From positions 1 through 51,615 of the forward strand of contig JAHDCS010000010.1 in NCBI GenBank assembly GCA_020629755.1: a DNA stretch of 51,615 bases, read 5' to 3'. This document shows, one piece after another, positions 2,417 through 51,615 of the stretch. How positions within the stretch are numbered: position 1 is the first letter of the stretch; every line of letters starts with the position of its first letter. The position numbers and the translations under genes are program-made. The DNA comes from Flavobacteriales bacterium (GTDB taxonomy: Bacteria > Bacteroidota > Bacteroidia > Flavobacteriales_G > JALEGO01). The notes beneath the pieces are model-generated. The model did not search any database, had not been told where the DNA came from, and was given only the letters and a program-made list of their open reading frames with translations.

Positions 2417-4459
2417 GTGGCTCGGCATAAAAACAAAGAAGAAAGCTGGCTTTCATTTAACGAACGGGTTTTACAAGAAGCTGAAGATAAAAGTGTTCCG
2501 CTCATTGAGCGCTTGCGCTTTTTAGGTATTTATTCTAACAATAGAGATGAATTTTTTAGAGTACGTATTGCCGGCTTAAGAAGACTTGTCAATCTAAAAA
2601 AGAAAGAACTTAAAACGCTAACTCAAAAACCAGAAGCGACCCTAAAAACACTTCAAAAAATAGTCGTCAAACAAGAAGCCCGCTTTCAAAAAACCTATGC
2701 CAAGATCATATCAGAACTTGAAAAAGAAAAAATCCACATCCTTAGTGATACACAGATTAAAGAGGAACATATCCCTTATTTAAATCATTTATTCAAAAAT
2801 GAAATCCGGCCACAACTCGTGCCCATTATGCTAGGGAATCAGATTGACTTTCCTTGGCTTAAAGACCGCGTATCTTACCTCGCCTTTCACTTGTCAGGAG
2901 TAAAACATAAAGCCCAATTTGCATTGATTGAATTGCCCTCAAAAAAAATTGGTCGTTTTTTTGAATTGCCTTCTGTTGAAGATAAAAAATACCTCATTTT
3001 GTTGGATGATATTGTACGTTTTTTTGCACCTCAAATTTTTCAAATTTTTGATTTCAAAAACTTCGACGCCTACTCTATTAAGGTTACTCGAGATGCTGAA
3101 TTAGATTTAGACGACGATATCTCAAAAAGCATTATAGACAAACTGAGTAAAAGCATCAAAAACAGAACAACCGGCGATCCGGTTCGATTTGTGCACGACA
3201 AAAAAATATCTAAGCCCCTACTCAATTATATTTTACAGAGAATTGACTTTGATCAAAGCTCATATGTGATCTCTACAGGCCGATACCACAACTATAGAGA
3301 TTTTATGCGTTTTCCTTCACTCGGGAAAACAAAACTATTACATCAAAAACAAAACCCCATCCCCCATAAATATTTAGAAGGACAAAAAAGTTATTTAAAT
3401 ACAATAGAGAAAAAAGACATTCTTCTGTATTATCCATATCATGATTTTAGTTATTTGATTAACCTTTTAAGAGAGGCCGCTATTGATCCAGAGGTCACTA
3501 AAATTAAAATCAACCTGTATAGAGTGGCTGAAAATTCAATGATTGTGAACACGCTCATTAATGCTGTTCGTAACGGAAAAGAAGTTTTGGCAGTGATAGA
3601 ATTAAAAGCCAGATTCGATGAAGAAGCCAATATTGAATGGTCAGAAAAACTTCAAGAAGAAGGCGTTCGGGTTATCTTTGGCGTACAGGGCCTAAAAGTA
3701 CATGCCAAACTCATTTTAATTGAAAAAAAGAAAAAAAGAACACCCATAAGGTACGCCCATATTGGCACTGGAAATTTCAATGAAAAAACCGCCCATATTT
3801 ATACCGACATTTCACTGCTTACAGCACACAAAGGCATTACAAGCGAAGTTGAACGGGTATTTGACTTTTTTGAAAACCCTTATAAAGTTAAGCGCTACTC
3901 GCATCTTTTTGTTTCGCCCTTTACCACCAGACGAAAATTTTTGTCTTTGATTGATAATGAAATTAGAAATGCTCAAAAAGGACGAGAGGCTTATATTATT
4001 TTAAAGGTCAATAATTTAGTAGACAAAGAGCTTATTGAAAAGCTCTATGAAGCAAGTGATTTTGGCGTAAAAATAAAGCTCATTGTTCGTGGCATGTGTG
4101 GCATTATAGCGTCTCAAAAAAAGTTATCTGAACAAATTTCAGCCATCAGTATTATAGATAAATTTTTAGAACACACAAGAATTGCCATCTTTTGCAACAA
4201 TAAAAACGAGCTGCAATTTATTTCATCTGCAGATTGGATGGCACGAAATTTAGACAACCGTGTTGAAGTCACTGTTCCTATCTATGATAGTAAAATAAAA
4301 AAACTCCTTAAGAAAATTACAGAAATTCAACTTTCTGATAATGTCAAAGCCAGAATAATTGACAAAGACTTTACCAATAAATACAAAAAACAAACAGGCA
4401 AAGCAATACGGTCTCAAAATCAAGTATATCAATATTTAATTGAAAACTACACCTCTTAG
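2417..4459 (+). CDS. ppk1: Polyphosphate kinase 1
   Basis: A 680-residue enzyme that reversibly polymerises the ATP gamma-phosphate into inorganic polyphosphate. The N-terminal domain shows ESWLSFNERVLQEAEDKS and RLRFLGIYSNNRDEFF. The catalytic C-terminal domains carry the two conserved histidines, His429 in GLKVHAKL and His448 in YAHIGTGNFNEKTAHIYTD, 19 residues apart as in the E. coli enzyme (H435 and H454). Length is normal for PPK1. The start is GTG at 2417, 4 bases after the stop of the barrel gene, so the gene is read through from that operon. No ppx gene is adjacent. Confidence 0.96.
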   Translation: MARHKNKEESWLSFNERVLQEAEDKSVPLIERLRFLGIYSNNRDEFFRVRIAGLRRLVNLKKKELKTLTQKPEATLKTLQKIVVKQEARFQKTYAKIISELEKEKIHILSDTQIKEEHIPYLNHLFKNEIRPQLVPIMLGNQIDFPWLKDRVSYLAFHLSGVKHKAQFALIELPSKKIGRFFELPSVEDKKYLILLDDIVRFFAPQIFQIFDFKNFDAYSIKVTRDAELDLDDDISKSIIDKLSKSIKNRTTGDPVRFVHDKKISKPLLNYILQRIDFDQSSYVISTGRYHNYRDFMRFPSLGKTKLLHQKQNPIPHKYLEGQKSYLNTIEKKDILLYYPYHDFSYLINLLREAAIDPEVTKIKINLYRVAENSMIVNTLINAVRNGKEVLAVIELKARFDEEANIEWSEKLQEEGVRVIFGVQGLKVHAKLILIEKKKKRTPIRYAHIGTGNFNEKTAHIYTDISLLTAHKGITSEVERVFDFFENPYKVKRYSHLFVSPFTTRRKFLSLIDNEIRNAQKGREAYIILKVNNLVDKELIEKLYEASDFGVKIKLIVRGMCGIIASQKKLSEQISAISIIDKFLEHTRIAIFCNNKNELQFISSADWMARNLDNRVEVTVPIYDSKIKKLLKKITEIQLSDNVKARIIDKDFTNKYKKQTGKAIRSQNQVYQYLIENYTS

Positions 4460-4492
4460 AAAGAAAACAAGACCTATGGTTTTTATTTTCGG

Positions 4493-6283
4493 TTAGTCAC
4501 TCTTAAACGCACTGAATACTTTATGTGCCTTTGCTTTTCCAAGTAACACTTCTAGTTCTTTAAGCTCAGCTTTTTTTATGCGATCAACCGATTTAAAATG
4601 CCTTAACAAGCTTTGTTTAGTTTTATCGCCAATACCTTTAATCTCTGTGAGCGTTGACTGGCGTATGCGTTTTGTTTTTATATTTCGATGATGTTCTATC
4701 CCAAAGCGATGCGCTTCGTTTCTAAGTTGCTGAATCAATTTTAAACTCTCAGATCGCTTATCTATATACAAAGGCAAAGAATCATTCGGGAAATAAATTT
4801 CTTCTAATTTTTTAGCGATGCCTATAATGGCTACTTTTCCAAAAATAGACAGCTGCTTTAAGCTCTCAACCGCAGAAGAGAGCTGTCCTTTTCCGCCATC
4901 TACAACAATAAGCTGAGGCAACTCTTTATTCTCTTGAATAAGGCGCTTATATCTTCGAAAAACAACTTCTTGCATAGAAGCAAAATCATCAGGCCCTTTA
5001 ACTGTTTTGATTAAAAAATGACGATAATCTTTTTTTGAAGGTTTTGCATTTTTAAACACAACGCATGCCGCTACAGCGTCTGTACCTGCATGATTAGAAT
5101 TATCAAAACACTCAATGTGCACAGGAGTCTGTTTTAATTTTAAATCTTTTTTTAGTGTTTCAAGAATTCGATTAGTGTGCCTATTCGGATCAATTAAACT
5201 TTGTTTTTTCTTTTTATCTAAAAGGAAGTATTTGGTGTTTTTTTCAGCCAAATCTAAAAGCGCTTTTTTATCGCCTTTAATGGGGTTTGTGATTTTAAAC
5301 CCCATATCAAATTCAATTTTTTCTGGACAAATCACTTCAGATGCTAAAGATTGAAACTTCTCTCTTAAATGCATAATAACCCCTGGATACATCTCTTTTA
5401 CCTCTTGATGCATGGGTATTTTTACATCTATAGTTTGAGCGTAAATGACCGCGCCATGATGTACACGCATGTAATTCACTGCAGCCAGTTTGTCTTGTTT
5501 TTGAATATATACCACATCTACATTCTGAATAGTGGGGCTCACAAGTGTAGACTTGCTTTGATAATTTTTAAGCAGCTCTATTTTTTCTTTAATCTGTCCA
5601 GCTTTTTCAAACTTTAATGCATCAGAAGCTTTTAGCATTTCTTGTTCTAAGACTTTTTTTACAGGCGCAATATTGCCTTTTAAAATGTGCTTTACTTTTT
5701 CTATATCCTCAATATAGTCTTCTAAGGATTGTTTATGTTCGCAGGGGGCTTTGCATTTTTTAATCTGATACTCTAAACAAGCACTGTATTTTTTCTTTAG
5801 AATATGTTTTTCAGACAAATCATAGGTACATGTTCTTAAAGAAAAAAGTTTGTGCAGCATCTCTAAAATGGTCCGCATAATTTTAGTGTTCGGATAGGGG
5901 CCATAATATTTGGAGCCGTCTTTTATTATTTTTCTAGTAGAAAACACCCTGGGAAAACGCTCATTTTTAATACAAATCCACGGAAAGGTTTTATCGTCTT
6001 TAAGTAGAATATTGTATTTGGGTTGATGTTTTTTTATTAGGCTGTTCTCTAAAATAAGCGCATCTAATTCTGTTTTAACCACAATATATTCTATGCGGCA
6101 AATTTGTTTTACTAAAATTTTTGTTTTTGCAGAATCAAGAGTTCTATTAAAATAAGAACGGACTCGTTTTTTCAAGCTTTTCGCTTTTCCAATATAAATA
6201 CGTTGATCATTGGCATTAAAATACTGATACACCCCTGGCTTATCTGGTAAATTTTTTAGGGTGGATGTTAACGCGTCTTTCAT
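4493..6283 (-). CDS. uvrC: Excinuclease ABC subunit C
   Basis: A 596-residue nuclease subunit that makes both incisions in nucleotide excision repair with UvrB. The N-terminal GIY-YIG domain is visible (PGVYQYF, then IYIGKAKSLKKRVRSYF). A cluster of cysteines lies near residues 150-185, a UVR helix-pair (EKAGQIKEKIELLKN) near 220, the RNase H-like domain with CFDNSNHAGTDAVAACVVF and VVDGGKGQL in the second half, and a C-terminal helix-hairpin-helix (LTEIKGIGDKTKQSLLRHF). Length is typical. It is convergent with ppk1 and divergent from the Tae4-like gene. Confidence 0.97.
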   Translation of the reverse strand: MKDALTSTLKNLPDKPGVYQYFNANDQRIYIGKAKSLKKRVRSYFNRTLDSAKTKILVKQICRIEYIVVKTELDALILENSLIKKHQPKYNILLKDDKTFPWICIKNERFPRVFSTRKIIKDGSKYYGPYPNTKIMRTILEMLHKLFSLRTCTYDLSEKHILKKKYSACLEYQIKKCKAPCEHKQSLEDYIEDIEKVKHILKGNIAPVKKVLEQEMLKASDALKFEKAGQIKEKIELLKNYQSKSTLVSPTIQNVDVVYIQKQDKLAAVNYMRVHHGAVIYAQTIDVKIPMHQEVKEMYPGVIMHLREKFQSLASEVICPEKIEFDMGFKITNPIKGDKKALLDLAEKNTKYFLLDKKKKQSLIDPNRHTNRILETLKKDLKLKQTPVHIECFDNSNHAGTDAVAACVVFKNAKPSKKDYRHFLIKTVKGPDDFASMQEVVFRRYKRLIQENKELPQLIVVDGGKGQLSSAVESLKQLSIFGKVAIIGIAKKLEEIYFPNDSLPLYIDKRSESLKLIQQLRNEAHRFGIEHHRNIKTKRIRQSTLTEIKGIGDKTKQSLLRHFKSVDRIKKAELKELEVLLGKAKAHKVFSAFKSD

Positions 6284-6294
6284 GAGCCTATGCT

Positions 6295-6302
6295 CAAAGG
6301 TA
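6295..6302 (-). promoter_or_regulatory. Bacteroidota -7 box of uvrC
   Basis: TACCTTTG on the minus strand matches TAnnTTTG exactly. TTG trinucleotides lie 17 and 20 bases upstream. The box ends 11 bases before the uvrC ATG, implying a leader of only about 8 bases. Confidence 0.6.
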
Positions 6303-6379
6303 TTCTTCCTTTAGGTAAACAACAAGATTAATTTACGGTGTTCAAAATAAGATTTTGTTAATAAATAGTTTTGTTATTT

Positions 6380-6387
6380 TAATTTTG
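6380..6387 (+). promoter_or_regulatory. Possible -7 box for the Tae4-like gene
   Basis: TAATTTTG fits TAnnTTTG. An upstream TTTG at 6354-6357 is 22 bases away, slightly long. The box lies 37 bases before the ATG, in the 141-base divergent region shared with uvrC. Confidence 0.3.
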
Positions 6388-6424
6388 TTTTTTGATATTT
6401 GGATTTCTTCAAACTAAACTAAAT

Positions 6425-7081
6425 ATGTTTTTAAAGAAATTATCTTTTTTCATCATTGGCTTATCTACGATTTGTGTGCTTTCAAATGCCTCTTCGTGTT
6501 CATCAAATCAAAACAACAATAACAACACGCCAAACAACAACACCAACAACCCAGGTTCTGGATCAACAGGCTCAAACAATTACACTTCTAACTTACCCTC
6601 ATATAGCTGTTTAAAATCACACTACTTAAGATACGGCAACAACATCCCTGTATCTGAAGATGTGATAGATCCGGCCTTAGGTGATTTACTTGGTGGTTAT
6701 GTGGAATACAATATCGATGCGGGTATCTTTTTAAACACATGTGCTATTCGTGTAAGCCACATGCTTAACAGCTGTGGACACACCATCCCTTACATTGCCG
6801 ATCAAACCTCATCGTCTGCCAATAACGATAAAAACATTTACCGTGTTGTGATCATGGAAGACTACCTCACAAATCGCTACGGGCCTGCCCAAATAACCAG
6901 CTCTAACAAAAGTAGTTTTATAGGTGAAAAAGGCATATTACTCATCCATATGCCAGGCACATGGTCTGATGCAACTGGGCATGTTGCGCTTTGGGATGGC
7001 CAGAAAACTTTGGGTGGATTTGCCACTGATAACTTTATGTTTGCTAATGCGCAGTATGCCAAGCTTTGGGTGGCTAATTAA
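6425..7081 (+). CDS. Secreted Tae4-like peptidoglycan amidase lipoprotein
   Basis: A 218-residue protein whose C-terminal domain resembles T6SS amidase effector 4 (Tae4, PF14113), papain-like enzymes that cut peptide stems of peptidoglycan. The family signature is visible as NTCAIRVSHMLN (putative nucleophile Cys106) and DATGHVALWDG (His186, Asp191). Tae4 effectors normally lack a signal peptide. This one starts with a hydrophobic leader ending in ASSC (a weak lipobox, Cys25), then an Asn/Gly/Ser-rich linker at residues about 26-53. I read it as exported and tethered, or secreted, rather than injected. No Tai4 immunity gene or T6SS component is in the window. The ATG at 6425 is preferred over an upstream in-frame start because the leader begins there. 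It could be a self-wall remodelling enzyme or an interbacterial toxin. Confidence 0.7.
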   Translation: MFLKKLSFFIIGLSTICVLSNASSCSSNQNNNNNTPNNNTNNPGSGSTGSNNYTSNLPSYSCLKSHYLRYGNNIPVSEDVIDPALGDLLGGYVEYNIDAGIFLNTCAIRVSHMLNSCGHTIPYIADQTSSSANNDKNIYRVVIMEDYLTNRYGPAQITSSNKSSFIGEKGILLIHMPGTWSDATGHVALWDGQKTLGGFATDNFMFANAQYAKLWVAN

Positions 7082-7085
7082 TATT

Positions 7086-9905
7086 TCAAAACCGATACCC
7101 TAACTGCACCCCAATATCTCTTCCTCTTTTAAAGGAATTAAAAACATACTCTTCACCTTTATAGCTGTGGGTCATTTTAATGGTCGGATCCAAAATATTT
7201 TTGATATAACACCTAATTTGGAGTTTTTTAAACGTTTTTGACAAAACCCAATCCAGAGACGGAATTTCTCTTGTGTACACATCCGGAATCCCCCCAAGCA
7301 TAACAACGGCAAGTCTTCGTCCAGTCAGATTAAAACTACACATTGAACGTAAATTGCCTTTTAATTCTTGTTCATAAAACACATTGAGTATATAGGGCGA
7401 TTGTCCATACAATGTTCTTGTGTTTTTAGCTGTAGGATTTGAAGAGCGCATCACAACCATTGATAAAGAATCTATTTCAGTAGCAGAGTGCATATAGGCT
7501 ACATTTACCCCTAAAAGCGAAGTCTTCTGATTTATATTTACCTTTTTTCTTACCTCGCATTCTATGCCATACAAATGTGCATATGGGCTTTGCCTATCAT
7601 CGAGTGATCCCGTATTTACCCAAGTGATCTCAGGGGTGGCATTTGCTGCCAAAGGGTTAAAGACCACTTCAATGGGTTTGTGGAAACGCTTATAAAATCC
7701 CCCCAGAGAAAACAACTCTTTGTCTTTAGAATACAGCTCATAACGCAGATCTACATTTTGAATTTTTGTTTGTTCTAGAGAAGCATTTCCAATGCGGACC
7801 CACCCAGTGGCAAAATCATAATCTGCAAAAGGCGCAATTTCTCTAAAGGTAGGTTGGGCAATGGCATGGGAATATACAAAGCGTAAGTTTTGATTTTCCT
7901 TGACTTTGTATGTCAAGTTAAGCGATGGTAAAATGTTAAAATTATCCAGTTTTGCCTTAGCTAAACTCACGTCATTACTTACAAGCTGCATGTGTGTCTT
8001 AAGGGCTCTTATCCCAGCATTAACCCTTATTTTTTCTTTAATTGTTTGATCTAAACAGAGGTAAGAAGCCCATTTACTTAAACTGCCATTGTAGGTATTT
8101 CTTAGTTCAGACACATCTGCAATATACATATACCCATTCTGAGGATTGGTTTGAGAAGCCAAAGGCAAATGCATATTTTGATCAGAAAAAAAATCAGCCA
8201 CCTGTCCATTAAAGTCTAAGCCTTGTAGTTGGTAATTAAAGCGTTGCTGCCTAACAGATCTTTGTTTATTAAGATAGCTAGCCCCTAAACTCAACCGCCC
8301 TTTTTTTGGTAAAGCATAGGTGATTGAAAGATTTGGGTTCAATGTTTTTTCTTTTAAATCTCTGTAAAACCGGGTCGGAACATTGTACAATGCCGACTGT
8401 ACTTTATAAACCGTATCGGCACCAACTACCTGATAATCATTATTAAAAAAACGCAAATCAGGCTGATATTGCCTTGAACGTGCATAGGCTATAGTATATG
8501 CTAAACTTAGATCTTTATGGTTCAACATCTCTCGACTATTCCCTTGAACAGATACATATTCTAACATGCGTTGTGTATAAAGCAATGCGCTTGTCTGATA
8601 GATAATATTAGGCGCATCCGATGGCAAAGGCCCTTCACTAAACTGCACTGTTTTATCAGCATTTTGATGCCTTAACGCATACAGTGTAATATCATGATTG
8701 GCATTTAACATATATTCTAAACTCGCATAGGCTGCCCAAAAGCTTTGCTCATTGCTCTTATTGTTATCTAACAGTCTATTTACAGTAAGTCCGTCTACTT
8801 CGTTTACATTTCCGGTTAGTGTATAACGTCCTATAAAAGCATCTTTTGCGAGATGGGTAAATTTTTTCTGGTATTTGATTCCTACAAAATACCCCAAAGG
8901 TTTGCCAAAGACACGCAACTGATTTGAGATAGAAAAGCGCGTTGAAAAATTAAGAGGAGAGGTCTTCGTGTGAAAGTCCATCTGTTTTGAAAAAGATTGT
9001 GTCACCTTTTCTAGTTGCTCATTATTGGCAAAAAAAACAGGCACCTCGCTATTTTTTACGGTTAGAGGTACATCTCTAGATCCGCCATCAAAAGCTAAAT
9101 GATCTTGAAAAGTGCTTGTATAGGTCAAAAAGTTTTTATTTAAAGAGGATAAAGTATTATAGGCAACTAACTGACTTAACTCTACAGTTAAACTATCTGA
9201 TGCTTTTTTAGTTGCAATAGTCATGATCCCCCCCGAAAAATCACCAGGTAAATTTGCCGAAAAGGATTTGTCAATTCGAATATTTTCAATAAACGTACTC
9301 GGAAAAAAATCGAGCTGAACTGTGTTTCGATCTGGGTCTAATCCTGGAATTTCAGATCCATTTACCAGCGTTTTACTGTAACGATCACTCAAACCCCTCA
9401 CATATATATATTTACCTGCTTCAACATTTACGCCTGTAATGCGTTTCGCCGCAGAAGATATACTGCCATCAGCCCTTTTACTTATTTCTTCTTTTGAGAT
9501 GGCTTCAACCACTCTTGCATCATTTTTTTTAAGAAACATCATAGCATTTTGAGTGTTTTCAAGCTTTTTAGCAGAAACGTTTGCCGCTTGAAGTTGAATG
9601 GTCTTCTCCTTAATGTTAAAATCAACAACAAGAGGCTTTGCATCTGTTACTTCTATGTGTTGTGTGTCATTTTCAAATGACACAAACTGACAAATTATAT
9701 TGTATTGCCCAGGCTGCACATTTGCTGTGATTTGATAAACGCCGTCTATATTTGTAACCCCACCAATTTGACTATTCTGAATCAACACCGTTGCGCCGAT
9801 CACAGGCTCTTTTGTAAGGTAATCCATAACTTTTCCAGAAATGGTATATTGAGAAAACAGGGTAGATGTACACAAAAGAAAGCCCAAAAAATAAATCAAA
9901 CGCAT
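7086..9905 (-). CDS. TonB-dependent receptor with carboxypeptidase-regulatory-like domain
   Basis: A 939-residue outer-membrane receptor for TonB-energised uptake. Signal peptide MRLIYFLGFLLCTSTLFS is followed by a CarboxypepD_reg-like domain at about 22-105 (ISGKVMDYLTKEPVIGATV). The plug has YIYVRGLSDRYSKTLVNGSEIPGLD near residues 165-195 and FSANLPGDFSGGIMTIATK. The barrel ends in the typical final-strand pattern GVQLGYRF. The substrate cannot be read from sequence; no SusD partner is adjacent, so glycan uptake through a SusCD pair is unlikely. It contains three copies of the GGGGGGAT motif described in the findings. The stop is only 5 bases from the convergent Tae4-like gene. Confidence 0.9.
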   Translation of the reverse strand: MRLIYFLGFLLCTSTLFSQYTISGKVMDYLTKEPVIGATVLIQNSQIGGVTNIDGVYQITANVQPGQYNIICQFVSFENDTQHIEVTDAKPLVVDFNIKEKTIQLQAANVSAKKLENTQNAMMFLKKNDARVVEAISKEEISKRADGSISSAAKRITGVNVEAGKYIYVRGLSDRYSKTLVNGSEIPGLDPDRNTVQLDFFPSTFIENIRIDKSFSANLPGDFSGGIMTIATKKASDSLTVELSQLVAYNTLSSLNKNFLTYTSTFQDHLAFDGGSRDVPLTVKNSEVPVFFANNEQLEKVTQSFSKQMDFHTKTSPLNFSTRFSISNQLRVFGKPLGYFVGIKYQKKFTHLAKDAFIGRYTLTGNVNEVDGLTVNRLLDNNKSNEQSFWAAYASLEYMLNANHDITLYALRHQNADKTVQFSEGPLPSDAPNIIYQTSALLYTQRMLEYVSVQGNSREMLNHKDLSLAYTIAYARSRQYQPDLRFFNNDYQVVGADTVYKVQSALYNVPTRFYRDLKEKTLNPNLSITYALPKKGRLSLGASYLNKQRSVRQQRFNYQLQGLDFNGQVADFFSDQNMHLPLASQTNPQNGYMYIADVSELRNTYNGSLSKWASYLCLDQTIKEKIRVNAGIRALKTHMQLVSNDVSLAKAKLDNFNILPSLNLTYKVKENQNLRFVYSHAIAQPTFREIAPFADYDFATGWVRIGNASLEQTKIQNVDLRYELYSKDKELFSLGGFYKRFHKPIEVVFNPLAANATPEITWVNTGSLDDRQSPYAHLYGIECEVRKKVNINQKTSLLGVNVAYMHSATEIDSLSMVVMRSSNPTAKNTRTLYGQSPYILNVFYEQELKGNLRSMCSFNLTGRRLAVVMLGGIPDVYTREIPSLDWVLSKTFKKLQIRCYIKNILDPTIKMTHSYKGEEYVFNSFKRGRDIGVQLGYRF

Positions 9906-49128: not shown

Positions 49129-49199
49129 GGTCACGTGGCCGAGTGGTTAGGCAGTGGTCTGCAACACCATCTACGGCGGTTCGAATCCGTCCGTGACCT
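49129..49199 (+). tRNA. tRNA-Cys(GCA)
   Basis: A complete cloverleaf: acceptor GGTCACG pairs with CGTGACC, the D arm is GCCGAGTGGTTAGGC, the anticodon stem GTGGT/ACCAT encloses loop CTGCAAC with anticodon GCA, and the T arm has TTCGAAT. The discriminator base is T, as expected for cysteine tRNA. CCA is not encoded. Confidence 0.95.
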
Positions 49200-49214
49200 C
49201 GAAGTAATTTCATT

Positions 49215-49245
49215 AACCCGTTGAAAACCAGTTTTTTGACGGGTT
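49215..49245 (+). terminator. Terminator after tRNA-Cys
   Basis: AACCCGT at 49215-49221 pairs with ACGGGTT at 49239-49245, extended by A/T pairs inside, and is followed by a T run. It ends the tRNA transcript. Confidence 0.85.
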
Positions 49246-49265
49246 TTTTGTTTTTGGGTGTGGCA

Positions 49266-49733
49266 ATGCGTTGTGTCTGTTATGGTTGGGGTAAAGTTAT
49301 ACACGGAAACAAAATTAGTAATGCACCTTGCCCTCAAGATCAAAATCAATTTTGGGAACTTGTGAAGCATGGCTCAGAAATTCGTCAAATCCACTTGTTA
49401 GCATCTCCCGTAGTAGAAGATTTTATCACTAGCTACCCTAAAGACGGTGATAACATCATCACACGAAAACTTGCCAAAACCAGTTTGGGTTATGAAGCAA
49501 CAAGTAGTACCCATGGCAAAGTATGGATAAATGATGAGCAGTATTTTGATAACGTGCCACTCATTGCTTGGGAGTTTTACATAGGAGGCTATCAACCTGC
49601 TCAAAAGTGGTTAAAAGATCGCAGGGGTAGATTACTTAGCTTTGAAGATATTTTACATTATCAGAAGATTATCAAAGCCCTGTCGGAAACAGATAGGATT
49701 ATGAAGTTAATTGATGAGGTTATTACTTTTTAA
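49266..49733 (+). pseudogene. Remnant of a type ISP restriction-modification enzyme (C-terminal)
   Basis: About 155 codons whose last 130 residues resemble the C-terminal specificity region of type ISP restriction-modification enzymes: HGSEIRQIHLLASP, WINDEQYFDNVPLIAWEF, IGGYQPAQKWLKDRRGRLLS and FEDILHYQKIIKALSETDRIM. Intact enzymes exceed 1,000 residues and carry nuclease, helicase and methyltransferase domains; none is here. The upstream part of the frame (from tRNA terminator sequence) is not protein-like. I therefore read it as a 5'-truncated fragment, left where foreign DNA joins the tRNA-Cys locus. Its stop overlaps the convergent DUF3703 gene by 11 bases. Confidence 0.6.
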
Positions 49734-50091
49734 CTGTATCAAAAATTACTTTTAAATCATTTTCTATTACCATAGGTTTTAAAGGTGGAACATTTGCTCC
49801 ACCAGTATTTCCAACAGGTATTTTACCCACAAATGACTTTATTCCACCGACAAGCAATCTTGGAATTTGACCAATAATCTCTCTAATGTTTTTAGTTTTA
49901 AAACCAAAGATTAGCATTTCCCAATGCACCAAGGAGTGATGGTATGGATAGGCTTGACCAATAATGTGCGCTCTTTCTAAATGCTGAAAAGCTCTTTGAT
50001 AGTCTTTTTCCTCAAATGCTTTATCATAAGCAATTAACTCCTTTTTAAAATAGGGCTTGAGAGGACTAGGCATTAATGTGTTGAATTTCAT
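49723..50091 (-). CDS. DUF3703 family protein
   Basis: A 122-residue protein with AFQHLERAHIIGQAYPYHHSLVHWEML and IIGQIPRLLVGGIKSFVGKIPVGNTGGANV, close to the DUF3703 (PF12487) pattern. The several conserved His residues suggest metal binding. In my recollection this family often lies beside heavy-metal efflux genes on mobile regions. It lies 9 bases downstream of the partial TonB receptor gene and is probably in its operon. Confidence 0.85.
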   Translation of the reverse strand: MKFNTLMPSPLKPYFKKELIAYDKAFEEKDYQRAFQHLERAHIIGQAYPYHHSLVHWEMLIFGFKTKNIREIIGQIPRLLVGGIKSFVGKIPVGNTGGANVPPLKPMVIENDLKVIFDTVKK

Positions 50092-50100
50092 ATTCTATGT

Positions 50101-51615
50101 TTAGTGATGATGTTCTTCTGAGCCAAATGGTCTCCAAATAATACCAAAAGAAAATATAAACCCATCAGTTGGGGCATAAAGTTCGGTAAATGTAGGGTTG
50201 TTATGCGGGGGTAAAACAACGCTGGTAAACCTGCTTTGTCTTACATCAGTAAAATTCTCAAAGTTTACATACAAACTACCAAAACCAGTCATCTTTTGCA
50301 CCAATAAGCCCATTGTGGTATAATCACTAGTTTGTGTTCTGTTACTTAAAAACTGCTTCCCTGTATAGTAAAGCTCATAACCCACTCGCCAATCTTCTGT
50401 TTCATACATCAAAATCATCCCTGCATTATGCATTGGTGTGAGAGGCTTTTGAGGAGATCCAGCTAAATAAGTTAACTCCGTTTGAATAAAGGCATAGTTC
50501 AAAAAATACTTAAAGTCCTTATAAGCTAATTTTATATTGGTTTCTGCTCCTATACTCTGAATGGGCTGTAGAGCATTTTCAAAAGCATATGCATTACTGT
50601 CACCCACTAACAATAAGCTATTTTGCAAAGATGTTAGATAAAACAATTGGTTAACACTTAAACTCACTTTATCCCAAAGCGCTGTCTGATAATTAAAATC
50701 AATATTTCCTCCTAATGATCGTTCTGCATTCAATATATTTTTATCAATAGGGAGTACATTGTAGAAATTAAGGGTGGTAGTTTCATCTGTAAATAGGTCT
50801 GGTGTTTTATACCCAAGCCCTCCTCCAATTCTACTTGAAAACTTCTGGCTAGGTGCATACAACAATGAAACTCTAGGCAAGAAAAAAGCCCCCCAGTCTC
50901 TTGTCTGATCTACCCTAAAGCCACTTTCTAACACAAATTTTTCACCTAAATCAAAGGTGTTGTTTACAAAAGCACCAGCAGTTAAATTCTGTTGATCTCT
51001 ATTCAGGCTTGTATTGTCTTCCTTAAAATCATCCGTATAGAGATTAAGTCCAAAGATCCAATCTGATTTTTTATTTAAAAGCCTGTAATTTAATTCTGTA
51101 AAAGAGTTTAATTGCTGCCCTGTGAAAAGTAAATTTGGGGTAAGTATTTCACGATTAAAATACCCAATGCTATTCTTAAACTGAAAACTAGAAGAATCAT
51201 TTATTTGATGATCTGCTACCGCTGTGTAACTTAGTCTTTGAGAAGTATTCGTTTCAAAGAATTGATGTACTCCATTCGCATCATCATTGATTTTACTCAT
51301 GTCTCCACCTTCCCTCTCATCAAAACTTGACTGAATGCCCAATTGAAGGGTGGTTCGCTCATTTGGATAATAAAACAGCTTTGGGTTTATAGCTAAAGAA
51401 CGGGTTTTAGGAATATTGCTAAAGTCATCTCCATCTGGGTCATAGGCTTGTTGGTTATTTGCTGAACCATACAACGTGTAACCTATTTTACCTTTACGGT
51501 TAGATGTAAATGCATTTACTGTTTGTCCTCCTGCTTGTGTTCCTGTAAGCATAAGCTCTAGTTCTCTTTCTTCTGTAGGTGTTTTGGAAACCATATTCAC
51601 AAGCCCAGCAATAGC
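50101..51615 (-). CDS. TonB-dependent receptor, 3' part (cut by window end)
   Basis: The gene runs off the right edge; 504 codons of the C-terminal side are visible. Translation at the edge reads AIAGLVNMVSK, a plug-domain pattern, so the start lies beyond the window and an internal GTG at 51600 is not the true start. The barrel has SFDEREGGDMS, FVLESGFRVDQTRDWGAFFLPRVSLLY and GGGLGYKTPDLFTDE. The C terminus ends in FGIIWRPFG then SEEHHH, three terminal histidines, unlike the usual final phenylalanine. With DUF3703 next to it, a metal-related substrate is plausible. Confidence 0.88.
   Translation of the reverse strand, partial: AIAGLVNMVSKTPTEERELELMLTGTQAGGQTVNAFTSNRKGKIGYTLYGSANNQQAYDPDGDDFSNIPKTRSLAINPKLFYYPNERTTLQLGIQSSFDEREGGDMSKINDDANGVHQFFETNTSQRLSYTAVADHQINDSSSFQFKNSIGYFNREILTPNLLFTGQQLNSFTELNYRLLNKKSDWIFGLNLYTDDFKEDNTSLNRDQQNLTAGAFVNNTFDLGEKFVLESGFRVDQTRDWGAFFLPRVSLLYAPSQKFSSRIGGGLGYKTPDLFTDETTTLNFYNVLPIDKNILNAERSLGGNIDFNYQTALWDKVSLSVNQLFYLTSLQNSLLLVGDSNAYAFENALQPIQSIGAETNIKLAYKDFKYFLNYAFIQTELTYLAGSPQKPLTPMHNAGMILMYETEDWRVGYELYYTGKQFLSNRTQTSDYTTMGLLVQKMTGFGSLYVNFENFTDVRQSRFTSVVLPPHNNPTFTELYAPTDGFIFSFGIIWRPFGSEEHHH

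What the first reader, a model, noticed from the sequence alone, without database searches (positions are those of the whole stretch)
49129..51615. Probable genomic island at tRNA-Cys with a type ISP restriction-modification remnant
Directly past tRNA-Cys and its terminator, a 5'-truncated C-terminal piece of a type ISP enzyme appears, followed in the opposite direction by DUF3703 and a TonB receptor. tRNA genes are common insertion sites. Stops of the remnant and DUF3703 overlap by 11 bases, as at a recombination joint. The region holds no copy of the dispersed octamer, although 2.4 kb is too short to be conclusive.
Basis: partly seen in the sequence, partly recalled or inferred. Interest (0 to 1): 0.5.

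Follow-up and report, generated by a model that had tools for sequence, protein, structure and literature searches.

The report
Mobile metal island beside tRNA-Cys gene
The end of this stretch is the left edge of an 11-kilobase mobile DNA island that inserted at a transfer-RNA gene, carries metal-handling genes and the tail of a broken DNA-defence enzyme, and is an ordinary kind of element although its attachment ends show an instructive layout.

Summary
Confirmed and completed. The window ends inside a genomic island. Contig C17 of the same genome overlaps the window end by 55 exact bases, and the TonB receptor frame runs through the join. C17 holds the missing part: eight more cargo genes, a small unknown gene, an intact-looking tyrosine recombinase, and a second copy of the tRNA-Cys 3' end plus terminator (66 of 71 bases, 15 tRNA-end bases exact). 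Core to core the island is 10,781 bases. A same-family relative keeps the left flank and tRNA-Cys but not the island; a congener has a related integrase and part of the same cargo at tRNA-Cys.

Two corrections. The remnant comes from a helicase-less type IIG restriction-modification enzyme, not a true type ISP one; only the specificity-domain fold is "ISP". It is about the "guide" subdomain alone, so probably inert. The 11-base stop overlap is real but joins two complete 3' ends; the scar is at the remnant's 5' end, 49267-49322.

New detail: these elements bring their own terminator plus integrase arm repeats behind the tRNA core. New member of a known kind.

The parts
49129..49200 (+). tRNA-Cys (GCA), the attachment gene; still reads as an intact tRNA
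   Evidence: ARAGORN
49186..49200 (+). core of attL, TCCGTCCGTGACCTC, repeated exactly at C17:2781-2795 (-)
49201..49256 (+). island-side terminator region following the core; with the core, 66 of 71 bases are identical to the attR copy at C17:2725-2795
   Evidence: hairpin -13.8 kcal/mol, z -2.96
49258..49266 (+). single arm-type repeat GTGTGGCAA; two copies lie on the integrase side of the island (C17)
49267..49322 (.). inferred deletion scar: after the single arm repeat and before the first codon homologous to intact enzymes
49323..49733 (+). C-terminal remnant of a type IIG restriction-modification enzyme (end of the Type_ISP_C specificity domain, about the guide subdomain); mechanical frame 49221-49733
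49723..50091 (-). DUF3703 protein, complete
50101..51615 (-). TonB-dependent receptor, C-terminal part; continues on C17:10475-11201 to a 728-aa protein
51561..51615 (.). exact 55-base overlap with C17:11147-11201 (-), through which the island continues for 8,351 more bases (C17:11146 down to 2796) to the attR copy: DUF6660/CopL-like, CDF transporter, Fur-family regulator, YdjM, NHL protein, double-HMA protein, 260-aa protein, HYC_CC_PP, 195-aa unknown, tyrosine recombinase

Best explanation
The region is the left end of a 10.8-kb integrative genomic island. Its tyrosine recombinase (C17:2949-4241) inserted a circular form by recombination between a 15-base core in the element and the 3' end of the chromosomal tRNA-Cys gene. 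The element supplies the last bases of the tRNA, a new transcription terminator and integrase arm sites, so the tRNA stays functional. The cargo is a metal-handling set (TonB receptor, CDF transporter, Fur-family regulator, HMA proteins, HYC_CC_PP, DUF6660/CopL-like, DUF3703), probably uptake and efflux of zinc or another transition metal. No relaxase, replication or excisionase gene was recognised, so the island is at most mobilised by a helper. The restriction-enzyme piece is a dead remnant: an earlier form of the island, or a neighbour element like the one at tRNA-Arg in a relative, carried a full type IIG enzyme, and a deletion from just after the first arm repeat to about codon 935 of that gene removed the rest. 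Shown: boundaries, repeats, integrase, cargo, truncation point, relatives. Inferred: mobility, metal, deletion history.
For: Contig join: exact 55-base dovetail, no other match in the genome, and the TonB frame runs through it to 728 aa, aligning over 2-716 with one continuous homologue in relative G002. attL/attR repeat with the integrase gene 153 bases from the attR core. In the alignment of three related integrases the residues expected of the tyrosine recombinase active site are invariant (the roles are recalled). The same integrase group sits next to tRNA genes elsewhere: tRNA-Leu on contig C65, a broken copy by tRNA-Leu on C66, tRNA-Cys in congener G001 and twice in tandem in Flavobacteriales AF_MB37. 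Relative G002 keeps EPS transferase, lipoprotein and tRNA-Cys but not the island. The remnant aligns to the C-terminus of enzymes of about 1,000-1,100 aa, up to 71% identity, and homology stops at 49323, where all 14 aligned intact enzymes continue with a highly conserved stretch. G002 has a tRNA-Arg element with a full type IIG gene and a homologue of the 195-aa island gene.
Against: attR carries the same kind of terminator as attL, whereas in G001 and G002 the attR terminator differs from the attL one, so the site before insertion is not settled. The downstream gene order beyond attR is not the same in G000 and G001 (M43 peptidase inverted). GC is barely different (island 0.352, window 1-49200 0.376). 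In G002 the metal genes lie outside the restriction-bearing element, so it is not a direct ancestor. No excision was observed; nothing here tests metal binding.
Confidence: 0.9

Rival explanations
1. Tandem accretion: the island inserted into a tRNA-Cys site already occupied by an older island, so the attR terminator is the older island's left end and the M43/lipoprotein block on C17:1-2724 belongs to that older island.
For: The attR terminator is of the island type (66 of 71 with the core); in AF_MB37 two islands stand in tandem at tRNA-Cys with attL and the middle site 98% identical over 62 bases and a different terminator only at the far end.
Against: No third core was found on C17 or in the first 8 kb of C10, no second integrase lies on C17, and the M43 gene also flanks attR in G001, as a native gene would.
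Confidence: 0.35
2. The restriction-enzyme piece is functional, either as a decoy/regulator or as a spare recognition domain for recombination with full enzymes.
For: It has no stop, and its identity to intact enzymes (55.1-68.5%) is within the range among intact ones (50.0-88.7%, median 67.2, 91 pairs).
Against: It maps to the end of the specificity domain only, about the guide subdomain of LlaGI; the base-reading loops described for LlaGI lie upstream. The genome holds no other Type_ISP_C match, so there is nothing to exchange with. No start codon context was established.
Confidence: 0.05
3. No island: ordinary chromosome, with a restriction gene decayed in place.
For: GC looks like the rest of the window.
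Against: Integrase, arm repeats, attL/attR repeats and an unoccupied relative.
Confidence: 0.03

Closest known systems
tRNA-targeted genomic islands with tyrosine recombinases
   Same: Integrase gene at one end, direct repeat of the tRNA 3' end at both ends, intact tRNA, accessory cargo, unoccupied relative.
   Different: Small (10.8 kb), no recognised transfer or replication gene; terminator and arm repeats directly behind the tRNA core.
Type IIG restriction-modification enzymes (PADLOC PDLC03610)
   Same: Remnant matches positions 939-1073 of 1096 (4.6e-35); a full homologue in the family matches end to end.
   Different: Only the last ~137 residues remain; nuclease and methyltransferase are gone.
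Type ISP enzymes LlaGI / LlaBIII
   Same: Same C-terminal specificity-domain fold (Pfam Type_ISP_C; profile hits to 5ffj and 4xqk).
   Different: The closest intact relatives have no helicase match in Pfam and are about 1,000-1,100 aa instead of about 1,578.
Tandem tRNA-Cys islands of Flavobacteriales AF_MB37 (CALSMU010000004.1)
   Same: Same integrase group, same target gene, same core-terminator-arm layout.
   Different: Different cargo; two islands in tandem.

Membership tests
tRNA-targeted integrative genomic island | integrase gene adjacent to an attachment site | tested here: met
   C17:2949-4241, Phage_integrase PF00589 2.2e-10, 153 bases from the attR core
tRNA-targeted integrative genomic island | direct repeat of the tRNA 3' end at the far end | tested here: met
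   15 of 15 core bases, 66 of 71 overall
tRNA-targeted integrative genomic island | relatives with the site unoccupied | tested here: met
   G002: same left flank and tRNA-Cys, other downstream genes; the right flank was not matched
tRNA-targeted integrative genomic island | excision to a circle | not testable with these tools
   needs PCR or reads
Integrative and conjugative element | relaxase and conjugation genes | tested here: not met
   none among the island genes
Type ISP enzyme | single chain with nuclease, SF2 helicase, methyltransferase and specificity domain | tested here: not met
   no helicase match in three intact relatives examined; the remnant itself holds only the end of the specificity domain
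Type IIG restriction-modification enzyme (origin of the remnant) | best family match along the remnant and its intact relatives | tested here: met
   PDLC03610: remnant 4.6e-35, G002 enzyme E=0 over 3-1068 of 1074
Zinc/transition-metal resistance island | cargo confers metal tolerance or uptake | not testable with these tools
   families only: CDF 2.8e-56, HMA, Fur, TonB, HYC_CC_PP

The most novel reading that the evidence does not exclude
In this group of Bacteroidota integrases the element's attachment site is a compound module, tRNA core + rho-independent terminator + paired arm repeats, so each insertion replaces the tRNA's own terminator; in tandem arrays these terminators are homogenised (93% in G000, 98% in AF_MB37) while the integrases are not, which would let islands stack at one tRNA without read-through. 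The island here would have lost one arm repeat together with its restriction gene and be locked in place.
Probability: 0.3. Interest if true: 0.45.

Novelty: new member of a known kind. Interest (0 to 1): 0.27.

Why it matters
It closes an island across two contigs, gives a clean example of how a tRNA gene survives insertion (terminator and tRNA end both replaced), and shows how a restriction-modification gene can be lost from an island while its last domain stays behind. It also corrects a likely mis-naming: proteins called 'type ISP' by domain can be helicase-less type IIG enzymes.

Tried and rejected
Type ISP as the enzyme class: rejected on domain content. The 11-base overlap as a scar: rejected, since both proteins reach their natural C-termini (PF12487 to 109/109, PF18135 to 342/342). 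A general bias to C-terminal-only leftovers of these enzymes: looked plausible, but several were frameshifted or split full genes (G175 C11, G195 C60); what remains are short extra C-terminal pieces in G166, G170, G271 and G273, not enough to claim. Finding the native right flank: G001's right flank maps to contig C10 of this genome, with no core in its first 8 kb and different genes at its edge, so the pre-insertion order downstream stays open. The tRNA-Val end of C17 has other neighbours in G001. PDB search with the remnant alone found nothing; the profile of four sequences did. Literature: six searches (listings seen) and found passages of three integration papers (PMC12884075, PMC7326022, PMC2784084) showed reconstituted genes including tRNA genes and one tandem-insertion remark, and no statement on element-borne terminators in Bacteroidota; this is not a proof of absence. 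A seventh search (listing seen) concerned type ISP enzymes, with passages of PMC12707154 and PMC4872093 read.

In one search, 14 of 16 chosen enzymes entered the alignment; G279 and G042 were dropped because the script found no long frame with the motif. L158 and L161 attachment sites were read by eye only; the automatic repeat test gave no arm repeat for them.

Full report
What is there. tRNA-Cys lies at 49129-49200, followed by a hairpin with a U run, a frame 49221-49733 that matches only the last third of Pfam Type_ISP_C (221-342 of 342, 1.3e-26), a complete DUF3703 gene and the C-terminal part of a TonB receptor. The stops overlap by 11 bases.

The rest of the island. Contig C17 (11,201 bases) ends with the same 55 bases as the window, in the orientation that continues it, and nothing else in the genome shares them. 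Through the join the TonB gene becomes one 728-aa frame, and it aligns over residues 2-716 with one continuous homologue in relative G002. Reading on along C17 (its - strand): a DUF6660/CopL-like protein, a CDF transporter, a Fur-family regulator, a YdjM membrane protein, an NHL protein, a protein with two HMA domains, a 260-aa protein without family, a HYC_CC_PP protein, a 195-aa protein without family, and a tyrosine recombinase. Just past the recombinase, C17:2725-2795 repeats the tRNA 3' end and terminator (66 of 71 bases; the 15 bases TCCGTCCGTGACCTC exact). From core to core the island is 2,430 + 8,351 = 10,781 bases.

Relatives. In 60 relatives (the own genome included), 25 have some relative of the integrase at E <= 0.001, and the next best genome is the one congener G001, 51% identical. 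G001 has tRNA-Cys with the same left flank (EPS transferase 57%, lipoprotein 49%), an island end behind it on one contig, and on another contig the integrase, HYC_CC_PP, 260-aa, HMA and NHL genes ending at the same core; its middle is not assembled into these two contigs. G001's contig has the same length and match as public record JAHDHZ010000011.1, a Flavobacteriales metagenome assembly. G002, same family, has the left flank and tRNA-Cys, followed by its own terminator, a transposase-like frame and a secreted protein, and none of the island genes. So the site is variable on the right and conserved on the left.

The remnant. A search of 395 genomes of the class with the remnant found matches in 34, the window's own included. 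The best are at the ends of enzymes of about 1,000-1,100 aa, up to 71% identity. In an alignment with 14 intact enzymes homology begins at 49323 and stops sharply there; all 14 continue upstream with a strongly conserved stretch that the window lacks. The three intact enzymes scanned have N6_Mtase and Type_ISP_C and no helicase family; the one scanned against PADLOC, from G002, is type IIG over its full length, and the remnant itself matches the same model. In a profile search of solved structures the best hit is 7lo5, a 1,029-aa methyltransferase, then LlaGI and LlaBIII. By the passages I read of PMC4872093, the LlaGI specificity domain consists of core (1200-1239, 1297-1440), jaw and guide (1440-1578), with its sequence-reading loops before 1375. 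The remnant's start falls at residue 1265 of the 1,406-residue chain 5ffj, about 1437 of LlaGI if that chain lacks the first 172 residues (my inference). So about the guide alone is left, and sequence recognition is not expected to remain. Its identity to intact enzymes (55.1-68.5%) is within that among them (50.0-88.7%, median 67.2, 91 pairs): the loss is not old compared with the family.

How it was probably lost. The integrase side of the island has two GTGTGGCAA repeats, the left end one (49258-49266). In G001, G002 and island A of AF_MB37 both ends have two. The stretch between the surviving repeat and the first homologous codon, 49267-49322, is therefore the likely deletion joint; a second, degenerate repeat cannot be excluded. 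G002 shows that such enzymes ride on elements of this family: its tRNA-Arg element, bounded by a 46-base exact repeat, holds an integrase, a D5-like primase, a full type IIG gene and a homologue (54%) of the island's 195-aa gene. There the metal genes lie just outside the element, and the enzyme reads towards the tRNA, unlike here, so it is a cousin and not the ancestor.

Attachment-site anatomy. In G000, G001, G002 and AF_MB37 the order is tRNA core, hairpin with U run, arm repeats at the left end; integrase, arm repeats, core, another terminator at the right end. All nine terminator stretches that I folded form the hairpin (z -2.8 to -6.7). Thus the insert replaces the tRNA terminator as well as its 3' end. 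In G001, G002 and the outer end of AF_MB37 the right-hand terminator is a different one; in G000 and in the middle site of AF_MB37 it is nearly the same as on the left. In AF_MB37 this is a tandem of two islands. For G000 the same is possible but unproven: no third core was found.

Function. Metal handling is inferred from families only: CDF (2.8e-56 to TIGR01297), HMA, Fur, TonB, HYC_CC_PP. No relaxase, replication or excisionase gene was recognised among the island's frames.

Judgement. The finding is right in substance, with the enzyme class and the meaning of the overlap corrected. It is a new member of a well-known kind; the compound attachment site is the part most worth a survey.

Noticed in passing
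L004 (G000:C17) 4233-4820 and L113 17055-17642, L139 4793-6000: A 195-aa protein without Pfam, NCBIfam, PADLOC or PHROG match sits beside the integrase here, beside the tRNA in the G002 element (54% identity), and twice near a type IIG gene in G042: a candidate mobile-element gene of unknown role.
   Followed up: partly
L116 5189-5275, L118 8345-8491, G271:C64:4766-4873, G273:C27:38968-39156: Short extra C-terminal pieces of type IIG enzymes; in G166, G170 and G271 they lie 0.6-1.9 kb downstream of a full gene on the same strand.
   Followed up: partly
G000:C65 (L064) and G000:C66 (L065): Two more integrases of the same group by tRNA-Leu genes; the C66 one is broken. The C65 one is followed by genes that look like a small replicating element.
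   Followed up: partly
G001:C27 (L115) 6276-8576: A second, shorter copy of the Fur / HYC_CC_PP / 260-aa / HMA cargo in the congener, near tRNA-Leu and tRNA-Gly, without an integrase seen.
   Followed up: partly
L004 1-55: C17 ends exactly in the 3' part of a tRNA-Val gene that faces the island; the rest of this tRNA was not found in the assembly.
   Followed up: partly
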